Source: Chloroflexota bacterium
Lineage (GTDB): Bacteria > Chloroflexota > UBA6077 > JACCZL01
Direction: 5' to 3'
Assembly: GCA_020850535.1 (NCBI GenBank)
Contig: JADZEM010000187.1
Span: 62,001 to 126,000 of the forward strand
DNA: 64,000 nt
Part shown: one piece after another, positions 60,713 through 63,185 of the stretch
How positions within the stretch are numbered: the stretch's first letter is position 1
Layout of the letters: each line of letters begins with the position of its first letter
Translations under genes and position numbers: made by a program
Notes under the pieces: generated by a model
The model's database searches: none
Told to the model about the DNA's origin: nothing
Seen by the model: only the letters and a program-made list of their open reading frames with translations

Positions 60713-61426
60713 ATGGCAACGCTTGAGCTTCAGAACATCCACACGTTCTACGGCAACATCCACGCGCTTCAAGGGATCACCATCGACGTCAAGGATGGCG
60801 AGATCGTCACGCTGATCGGGGCGAACGGCGCGGGCAAGAGCACCACGCTCCGCACCATCTCCGGCATCCTCCAGCCCCGCGAAGGCGTGGTCAAGCTTGA
60901 CGGTCAGTCGATCAATGGCCTGCCGCCGCACGAGATCGTGGAGAAGGGTGTCTGCCAGGTGCCCGAGGGTCGCCGCATCTTCTCCCGGATGACGGTCCGC
61001 GAGAACCTGGAGATGGGCGCGTTCATCCGCAAGGACAAGGCCGGCATCAAGAGTGACCTGGACCGCATCCTCCAGCTCTTCCCGCGACTTGCCGAGCGCA
61101 TCGGGCAGAAGGGCGGCACGCTCTCCGGCGGCGAGCAGCAGATGCTGGCCATCGGGCGGGCCTTGATGTCGCGGCCGAAGATCCTGCTGCTGGATGAGCC
61201 GTCGATGGGCCTCGCGCCGATCCTCGTCGAGACGATCTTCGACACGGTCCAGGAGATCAATGCCCAGGGCGTCACGGTGCTGCTGGTGGAGCAGAACGCC
61301 GTGATGGCGCTGCAGATCGCGCACCGGGGCTACGTGCTGGAGACGGGGACCATCGTGCTGGCGGACAGCGCCGAGAGCCTGCGCCAGAACGAGACGGTTC
61401 AGAAGGCGTACCTCGGCATCGAGTAG
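60713..61426 (+). CDS. livF: Branched-chain amino-acid ABC ATPase LivF
   Basis: 237 aa. NIHTFYGNIHALQGI at the start, Walker A GANGAGKS, signature LSGGEQQM, Walker B LLLDEPSMG and the LivF ending EAYLG-like (KAYLGIE). It completes the importer. It is separated from livG by 40 bases and converges with the chimeric toxin ORF. Confidence 0.95.
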   Translation: MATLELQNIHTFYGNIHALQGITIDVKDGEIVTLIGANGAGKSTTLRTISGILQPREGVVKLDGQSINGLPPHEIVEKGVCQVPEGRRIFSRMTVRENLEMGAFIRKDKAGIKSDLDRILQLFPRLAERIGQKGGTLSGGEQQMLAIGRALMSRPKILLLDEPSMGLAPILVETIFDTVQEINAQGVTVLLVEQNAVMALQIAHRGYVLETGTIVLADSAESLRQNETVQKAYLGIE

Positions 61427-61438
61427 CGGCCGACGGTC

Positions 61439-61897
61439 CTACGGCACCGCAATCGTCAACCCATCACCTACGAATCGGCGAACGTGCCGGTCATTGAACG
61501 TGAGGATCTCGGCGACTCCAGCCTGTCGTGCACACGCCACGATGGCCGCGTCGTGGACCTGTCCGCCGAGCGTTCCCTCCTCCACCGAACGGTAGAGCAG
61601 TTGCACATACCGTCCGTGACGCATCGCCACGACCACGCCATTGTTCAGGAACGTGTCCTCAATCCCGGAAAGTGCATCATGGGCGGAGAATCGGGACCGA
61701 TGCACGATCAGTTCTCGGACAGCCTCGTCCTGATACTCAGGAACGATACGTCCGAGCAACGGATAGCTTCGAAGCATCTGCGTCGCATTGCCCACGCGAA
61801 CTCGCAGCGCGCGGGCAGCACTCGGCGCTCCATCGAGGTATCCGAGGGCCGAGCGGACGTCGCGGTACGCTATGCGTGACCAGCGGACGCGAGCCAC
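61439..61897 (-). pseudogene. ParE-like toxin fused to the C-terminal part of a PIN (VapC) toxin
   Basis: 152 aa. Residues of about 1-70 follow the RelE/ParE toxin pattern (RWSRIAYRDVRSALGYLDG, LGRIVPEY, VRELIVHRSRF). At residue 71 the sequence changes to the second half of a PIN ribonuclease (FLNNGVVVAMRHGRYVQLLY, GGQVHDAAIVACARQ, ILTFNDRHVRRFVG). The first acidic residues of the PIN active site are missing and the ParE C-terminal strand is replaced, so neither toxin is complete. It is probably a deletion fusion of two neighbouring toxin-antitoxin loci. GTG start 61897. Confidence 0.7.
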
Positions 61898-61972
61898 TCG
61901 TCGACCTCCCTCATGAGATCGCGGTCGTCGACAAGGGCGACTTTCCTGGATCGTACTATGCGTGGTGCGCGG
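61870..61972 (-). pseudogene. Possible antitoxin remnant upstream of the ParE/PIN ORF
   Basis: An open stretch in another frame reads IVRSRKVALVDDRDLMREVD and ends WLASAGHA before a stop at 61870-61872. It overlaps the chimeric ORF start, as antitoxin genes often overlap their toxin genes. It has no usual start except an ATG at 61914 that would leave 14 residues. Too short for a family call; it may be a relic. Confidence 0.3.
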
Positions 61973-61973
61973 C

Positions 61974-63185
61974 TCAGCCCTGGAGCCGCCTGCCCGGGCC
62001 GTCGTCGAACTCGGCCTTCGCCGCAGAGAGCAGCGACGGGTCCGACAGGATGTCGATGGCCGTCATCGCCAGCCCCTTGGCCGCCGCCAGCACCGCCCCG
62101 TGGGCCTTCTCGGACAGCGCAGCCTCGGCGAAGGCCGCCGAGTGGTGCGGCGCATCGGGATCCGAGATCGAGATCCCGGCCTCGATGGCCGGCACCTTGC
62201 GGGTCACGTTGCCGAAGTCCGTCGAGCCGAGGCCGGGCACCGGCCGCTCGGGCAGCACGTCGAGGCCCAGAGCTTCGAGGTTGCGCCGGAACGCCCGGGC
62301 CAGCGTCAGGTTCGGGACGACGTTCTCATAGGGCGGCATGTACTCGCGCACGTCCAGGCGAGCGCCAGCCATCATCGCACCGCCTTCGGCGCACTGCACC
62401 ACCCGCTGAAACACCGACTCCAGCTCCTCAGCGGTGGGAGCGCGCACGCGGAACCGGCACGAGGCGATCTCCGGCACGACGTTCGGGACGCCGCCGCCCC
62501 GGGTGATGACGCCATGAATGCGGATATCCGGACGCACATGCTGGCGCAGCGCGTTGATCCCAGCGTAGGTGTGCAGGACGCCGTCCAGCGCGTTGATGCC
62601 CTCCCAGGGATACAGCGCCGCGTGCGCCGCCTTGCCGTGGTAGATGAAGTCGACCCCGCGCGCCGCCAGCGAGCCCTCGACGCTGATGTTCGTGTACTGG
62701 CTCGGGTGAAACATGATGCTGGCATCGACGGCGTCGAATTCGCCCGCGCGGACGAGATGCACCTTGCCGCCGGAGTTGTCCACCGTCGATTCCTCGGCTG
62801 GCGTGCCCAGGATGACCACACTGCCGGGCAGGTACTGTGCGACCGTCGCGAGGGCCAGCCCTGCGCCCACCGCCGACGGCCCGATCAGGTTGTGCCCGCA
62901 GCCATGCCCGATGCCCGGCAGCGCATCGAACTCGGCCAGGATGGCGACAGTCGGCCGCCGCCGCCCGCCGATCCGCGCCCGCCAGGCCGTCGGCAGATCC
63001 GCGATCCCCAGCTCAGCGTCGACGCCGCCCTCGGAGAGCAGGCCAGTCAGCGTCGCCACCGACTTGTGCTCCTGGTGCCCCAGCTCCGGGTTGCGCCCGA
63101 TGCTCTGCGCCGCCTCCCAGAGACGCGGCGCCAGCCGGTCGACCTCGCCGATAACCTGTCGTTTCAGCTCGTCAATCTCGCGCAT
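61974..63185 (-). CDS. M20-family metallopeptidase/amidohydrolase (AbgB/HmrA-like)
   Basis: 403 aa. Metal sites are visible as AEFDALPGIGHGCGHN (Asp and His), TPAEES (Glu pair), MFHPSQ and the C-terminal PDAPHHSAAF (His). The dimerisation domain begins at about residue 180 with FIYHGKAAHAALYPWEG. It resembles AbgB and other amidohydrolases that cleave N-acyl or p-aminobenzoyl amides. ATG at 63185. The TPP enzyme gene lies upstream on the same strand, 135 bases away, with no apparent common pathway. Confidence 0.92.
   Translation of the reverse strand: MREIDELKRQVIGEVDRLAPRLWEAAQSIGRNPELGHQEHKSVATLTGLLSEGGVDAELGIADLPTAWRARIGGRRRPTVAILAEFDALPGIGHGCGHNLIGPSAVGAGLALATVAQYLPGSVVILGTPAEESTVDNSGGKVHLVRAGEFDAVDASIMFHPSQYTNISVEGSLAARGVDFIYHGKAAHAALYPWEGINALDGVLHTYAGINALRQHVRPDIRIHGVITRGGGVPNVVPEIASCRFRVRAPTAEELESVFQRVVQCAEGGAMMAGARLDVREYMPPYENVVPNLTLARAFRRNLEALGLDVLPERPVPGLGSTDFGNVTRKVPAIEAGISISDPDAPHHSAAFAEAALSEKAHGAVLAAAKGLAMTAIDILSDPSLLSAAKAEFDDGPGRRLQG

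What the first reader, a model, noticed from the sequence alone, without database searches (positions are those of the whole stretch)
61439..61972. ParE-PIN chimera, a probable fusion of two toxin genes
The ORF joins the first two thirds of a ParE-type toxin to the last half of a VapC-type PIN domain, within one frame, and overlaps a possible antitoxin relic. Two different toxin families have been cut and joined, leaving the PIN active site incomplete.
Basis: partly seen in the sequence, partly recalled or inferred. Interest (0 to 1): 0.7.

Follow-up and report, generated by a model that had tools for sequence, protein, structure and literature searches.

The report
Broken remnant joining two toxin genes
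Two ordinary bacterial toxin genes appear to have been cut and joined in this genome, leaving a probably dead hybrid rather than a new kind of toxin.

Summary
The minus-strand ORF 61897-61439 (152 codons, GTG) carries the first ~70% of a RelE/ParE-type toxin (residues 1-69; profile positions 1-70 of 98, E 1.6e-16) joined in frame to the last ~60% of a VapC-type PIN toxin (residues 66-152; positions 58-144 of 146, E 4e-20). The matches meet at residues 66-69. The ParE part lacks its last ~28 positions; the PIN part lacks the half holding the first aspartate and the glutamate of the VapC centre. Just upstream a 23-codon stub resembles the end of the small antitoxins that precede six ParE relatives and overlaps the toxin start in the same relative frame; this part is only moderately supported. 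In 400 same-phylum genomes, 21 match rows in 18 of the 399 others show no joined architecture. Plasmids gave one ParE-half match, phages none. Best reading: a rearranged, degenerate toxin-antitoxin locus (chimeric pseudogene). Function was not testable, and an assembly error is not excluded.

The parts
61439..61897 (-). Chimeric ORF, 152 codons plus stop, GTG start
61691..61897 (-). ParE/RelE-type part, residues 1-69; the last ~28 profile positions are missing
   Evidence: PF05016 E 0.0062, below cut-off; relatives' profile E 1.6e-16, positions 1-70 of 98; matches of the ParE relatives end at residues 61-70 except L025, which runs to 91-93
61442..61702 (-). VapC-type PIN C-terminal part, residues 66-152, keeping HDAAI (residue 115 on) and TFND (residue 133 on); the N-terminal half with the first Asp and the Glu is missing
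   Evidence: relatives' profile E 4e-20, positions 58-144 of 146; alignment; positions
61691..61702 (-). Junction zone, residues 66-69 (HRSR); the Arg at 69 lines up with an Arg that most relatives of both families carry there
   Evidence: overlap of the two profile matches; Arg in 4 of 5 ParE and 6 of 6 VapC relatives shown at the codons
61870..61941 (-). Probable antitoxin stub, 23 codons plus stop, C-terminal end only, overlapping the ParE start by 28 bases
   Evidence: translation; C-terminal profile 9.4 bits, 0 of 3000 shuffles as high, but weaker with other settings; same relative frame of overlap as in 6 relatives
61974..63185 (-). Neighbour: M20-type peptidase/amidohydrolase gene (family name recalled), ending 33 bases before the stub
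   Evidence: homologues at E 1e-30 in 15 of 26 genomes including the own
60713..61426 (+). Neighbour: LivF-like ABC transporter ATPase gene (name recalled), converging on the chimera with 12 bases between the two genes

Best explanation
A degenerate toxin-antitoxin locus. A small antitoxin gene and a RelE/ParE-type toxin gene formed an overlapping pair; the antitoxin lost about its first two thirds, and the toxin gene was broken after the RELIV stretch (second strand of the fold, as recalled) and joined, by deletion or illegitimate recombination, to the second half of a vapC gene. The join happens to be in frame, so a 152-codon frame stays open. The product should have neither activity, because the ParE part lacks the end of its fold and the PIN part lacks half of its acidic centre. 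Shown: the two half-matches and their boundaries, and that a full-length relative of each kind finds no other copy in this draft genome. Inferred: the event, its mechanism, and the lack of function.
For: In 400 same-phylum genomes, 18 besides the own match (21 rows) and none is a ParE-PIN fusion. The profile boundaries are complementary and meet at residues 66-69. The relatives are separate toxin genes: six of eight ParE relatives examined have a small RelB-like antitoxin gene in front, the other two (L014, L022) a different, Phd-like one (name recalled); an AbrB-like gene (name recalled) is seen before three VapCs, L005, L006 and L010 (the other VapCs were not examined for it). In the own genome a VapC relative and a ParE relative both find only this locus, over their positions 61-144 of 147 and 1-71 of 104. 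The antitoxin is probably cut too. A survey of the superfamily mentions solitary and incomplete toxins among its hits, which it removed (PMC11980606, passages seen).
Against: The frame is open over 152 codons with coding-like codon-position G+C (0.73/0.47/0.67), close to intact ParE and VapC relatives. Random substitutions leave it open in 51% of runs at 0.044 per site and in 10% at 0.175, so the break is fairly recent or the frame is kept. The stub is weak on several tests: the full antitoxin profile did not list it at E below 5 in the window, gave it 1.7 bits (23 residues; 124 of 3000 shuffles as high) and 0.7 bits (36 residues; 315 of 3000), with 25 of 1194 background segments as high; on the C-terminal profile, 36 residues are matched by 6 of 3000 shuffles and 2 of 1194 segments, one of which is evidently its own frame. 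No adjacent parE and vapC was found in relatives to serve as the ancestor.
Confidence: 0.85

Rival explanations
1. Assembly artefact: a draft assembly joined a parE copy and a vapC copy in error.
For: The genome is a draft in 227 contigs with 4.58% estimated contamination; no other copy of either parent was found in it; no independent genome confirms the join.
Against: The site lies inside a 218,587-base contig and the join is in frame. The two families show little shared nucleotide sequence at the join, whereas assemblers tend to misjoin at long repeats (recalled). Reads were not available.
Confidence: 0.08
2. A new functional protein: the ParE part keeps a binding surface and the PIN part supplies replacement structure, giving a regulator or decoy without toxin activity.
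For: Open frame, GTG start as in the ParE relatives L004, L009, L012 and L025, coding-like codon bias.
Against: No relative with this architecture; antitoxin probably truncated. The single-sequence AlphaFold model has mean pLDDT 47, uninformative rather than negative.
Confidence: 0.05
3. A chance ORF with no real homology in one half.
For: General libraries are weak: Pfam ParE 0.0062 below cut-off, PIN 0.16; NCBIfam nothing.
Against: Relatives' profiles give 1.6e-16 and 4e-20 (not independent of the query); 42% identity over residues 69-152 to a VapC and 43% over residues 2-70 to a ParE.
Confidence: 0.01

Closest known systems
RelE/ParE superfamily toxin (PF05016)
   Same: Residues 1-69 match positions 1-70 of 98 of the relatives' profile; an antitoxin-like stub overlaps its start in the frame relation of six relatives.
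   Different: Lacks the end of the fold (YRVVY... and VEIVAVIHGA-like stretches) that most of the relatives have.
VapC-type PIN toxin (PF01850)
   Same: Residues 66-152 match the second half and end at the family's own C-terminus (VVP/AVP).
   Different: Lacks the N-terminal half with the DT[STN] aspartate and the E-AY glutamate; no AbrB-like gene was seen in the bases before it.
PtuZ of ptuXYZ loci: an N-terminal PIN-like domain lacking catalytic residues plus a C-terminal BECR (RelE-type) domain (PMC11980606, passages seen)
   Same: Also combines a PIN-like and a RelE-like part, with a catalytically incomplete PIN.
   Different: There the order is the opposite, both domains are modelled as folds joined by a helical linker, and it is part of an operon; here two partial domains, seen in one genome.

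Membership tests
RelE/ParE toxin (PF05016) | Match to the family above the curated cut-off | tested here: not met
   17.5 bits (19.2 for the half alone) against 23
RelE/ParE toxin (PF05016) | C-terminal part of the fold present | tested here: not met
   Pfam match stops at 63 of 89, relatives' profile at 70 of 98; alignment
RelE/ParE toxin (PF05016) | Intact cognate antitoxin gene | tested here: not met
   Only a probable 23-codon C-terminal stub
VapC PIN toxin (PF01850) | Full PIN domain | tested here: not met
   Relatives' profile positions 58-144 of 146 only; Pfam E 0.16, positions 89-116 of 120
VapC PIN toxin (PF01850) | Four active-site positions (recalled: D, E, D, D/N) | tested here: not met
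   Only the last two regions are kept (HDAAI from residue 115, TFND from 133); the first two lie in the missing half
ParE-PIN fused family | Same architecture in several species | tested here: not met
   Seen in none of the 18 other matching genomes out of 399; one half-match in plasmids, none in phages; one half-match in genome contigs
Degenerate toxin-antitoxin locus | Partial toxin and antitoxin genes whose relatives elsewhere are separate and fuller | tested here: met
   antitoxin part only moderately
Degenerate toxin-antitoxin locus | Loss of function | not testable with these tools
   needs an expression test

The most novel reading that the evidence does not exclude
The hybrid is expressed and kept: a new small protein in which a PIN C-half completes a truncated RelE/ParE fold, acting as a non-toxic binder, for example an antitoxin sponge or anti-addiction decoy.
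Probability: 0.05. Interest if true: 0.6.

Novelty: new member of a known kind. Interest (0 to 1): 0.2.

Why it matters
It is a clear example of how toxin-antitoxin loci can decay by rearrangement, and a caution for annotation: the joined frame stays open and could be called a gene although it is two partial toxins. If the hybrid proved functional it would show a new protein arising from pieces of two unrelated toxins, but nothing here supports that.

Tried and rejected
True fused family: not found. Of the 21 rows in other genomes, 17 lie within residues 1-70 or 61-152. The four that cross the junction: L025 (2-91) is a ParE along its length and L027 (32-146) a VapC by profile (E 7.3e-13); L028 and L031 are frames of 1410 codons that match neither profile at E 0.001. 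In a looser BLAST (no composition correction) some VapC relatives (L003, L005, L010, L013, L030) extend, with gaps, into residues 14-41; these are VapC N-halves laid on the ParE half, not fusions.

Ancestral adjacency: no locus held except the own one (L001, L002, L032) has both a ParE and a VapC match at E 0.001; flanks are about 1.5 kb, less at contig ends, and frames under 40 codons were left out.

Synteny: 28 loci around relatives of the peptidase (L033-L060, five of them paralogues in the own genome) hold no match to the chimera at E 0.001; one (L041) has a distant LivF-like match (27.6% identity), too weak to claim the same site.

Microhomology at the join: an Arg is common in both families, but the codons differ among relatives, so no crossover point is proven.

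Structure: single-sequence AlphaFold, mean pLDDT 47, not used.

Literature: four searches. One search listed 20 of 35 papers, none, 12 of 427, 2 of 2. Passages of two papers were seen (PMC2701414; PMC11980606). No ParE-PIN chimera of this kind was seen there; this is not a thorough search.

Full report
What is there. On the minus strand, 61897-61439, lies a 152-codon frame with a GTG start, between a converging LivF-like ABC ATPase gene (60713-61426, +) and an M20-type peptidase gene (61974-63185, -); these two names are recalled from the sequence, not from a family search. The own genome is an unnamed draft of 7.65 Mb in 227 contigs, 96.32% complete with 4.58% contamination.

Two halves. Pfam sees the ParE half weakly (PF05016, E 0.0062, below cut-off) and the PIN half barely (E 0.16 when searched alone, nothing in the whole protein); NCBIfam gives nothing. 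Whole-genome searches are clearer. Of 101 genomes (100 relatives and the own) 10 have matches; of 400 phylum genomes including the own, drawn evenly from a larger group, 19. In one search, 17 of the 21 rows in other genomes lie within residues 1-70 or 61-152; the other four are one ParE, one VapC and two large proteins that match neither profile. Most ParE relatives are frames with the remaining end of the fold; the VapC relatives, except L007 (cut by a contig end), begin with DT[STN] and run to the same C-terminus. Scanned alone, one VapC relative and two ParE relatives pass Pfam's cut-offs, while in NCBIfam one of these ParEs and the VapC score below the curated cut-offs and the other ParE has no hit.

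Boundaries. Profiles of seven ParE and eight VapC relatives match the chimera at positions 1-70 of 98 (residues 1-69, E 1.6e-16) and 58-144 of 146 (residues 66-152, E 4e-20). These proteins were mostly found with the chimera as query, so the E-values are flattering; the complementary boundaries are the real evidence. At residue 69 an Arg stands in 4 of 5 ParE and 6 of 6 VapC relatives displayed, so the crossover lies within about four codons, but no base-level microhomology is proven.

What is lost. The ParE part lacks what corresponds to YRVVYR...VEIVAVIHGA in relatives. The VapC part lacks its first half with two of four active-site positions (motif recalled); HDAAI and TFND are kept.

Antitoxin stub. 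Six of eight ParE relatives examined (L004, L009, L011, L012, L025, L026) are preceded by a small antitoxin-like gene; the two members scanned have no Pfam hit above threshold and only weak RelB-like hits in NCBIfam. It overlaps the parE start by 4 to 43 bases, in all six in the same relative frame, and the window stub does so too, by 28 bases. L014 and L022 have a different, Phd-like antitoxin (name recalled). The L026 antitoxin lacks a clear N-terminus. The window's VALVDDRDLMREVDEWLASAGHA scores 9.4 bits on a C-terminal profile (0 of 3000 shuffles as high). Against this: the span was chosen by eye; with 36 residues 6 of 3000 shuffles and 2 of 1194 background segments (one evidently its own frame) are as high; on the full antitoxin profile it scores only 1.7 or 0.7 bits (124 and 315 of 3000 shuffles, 25 of 1194 segments as high), and that profile did not list it in the window at E below 5. 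I take the stub as probable.

Uniqueness. No other genome (overlapping samples) has the joined form. Plasmids: one record, ParE half only; phages: none; genome contigs: 114 stretches matched a pattern and one encodes a relative, over residues 24-70 only. In the own draft genome a ParE and a VapC relative find only this locus at E 0.001, although three other ParE-family and four other PIN-family stretches exist. So no copy of either parent subfamily was found.

Age. Codon-position G+C (0.73/0.47/0.67) resembles that of three ParE and four VapC relatives (third position 0.60-0.76) rather than the neighbouring genes (0.90-0.92). Random substitutions leave the frame open in 51% of runs at 0.044 and 10% at 0.175 per site: the break looks fairly recent, or the frame is kept.

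Verdict. The closest described PIN plus RelE combination that I saw, PtuZ, has the opposite order and two modelled domains (PMC11980606, passages seen). Interest is low.

Noticed in passing
L004 (G001:C451), ParE on the minus strand: This same-family ParE matches PF05016 only to position 74 of 89 and then runs on with sequence unlike the other relatives, so it too may be damaged near its end, or misassembled.
   Followed up: no
L004, L009, L011, L012, L025, L026, gene just before parE: A small antitoxin-like family (LPDD...GL...G..SHEEV pattern); the two members scanned have no Pfam hit above threshold and only weak RelB-like NCBIfam hits.
   Followed up: partly
L010 and L013 (G068:C52:4576-5099): Two similar tandem copies of a VapC C-terminal stretch about 270 bases apart beside a run of N: a partial duplication or an assembly artefact.
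   Followed up: no
L029 (G216:C16): A PIN C-terminal fragment in a 114-codon frame near a fuller PIN frame of the same kind, another partial copy.
   Followed up: no
window 61439-61897 against 60713-61426 and 61974-63185: Third-position G+C of the chimera (0.67) is well below that of the two neighbouring genes (0.90-0.92), as expected of acquired DNA.
   Followed up: partly
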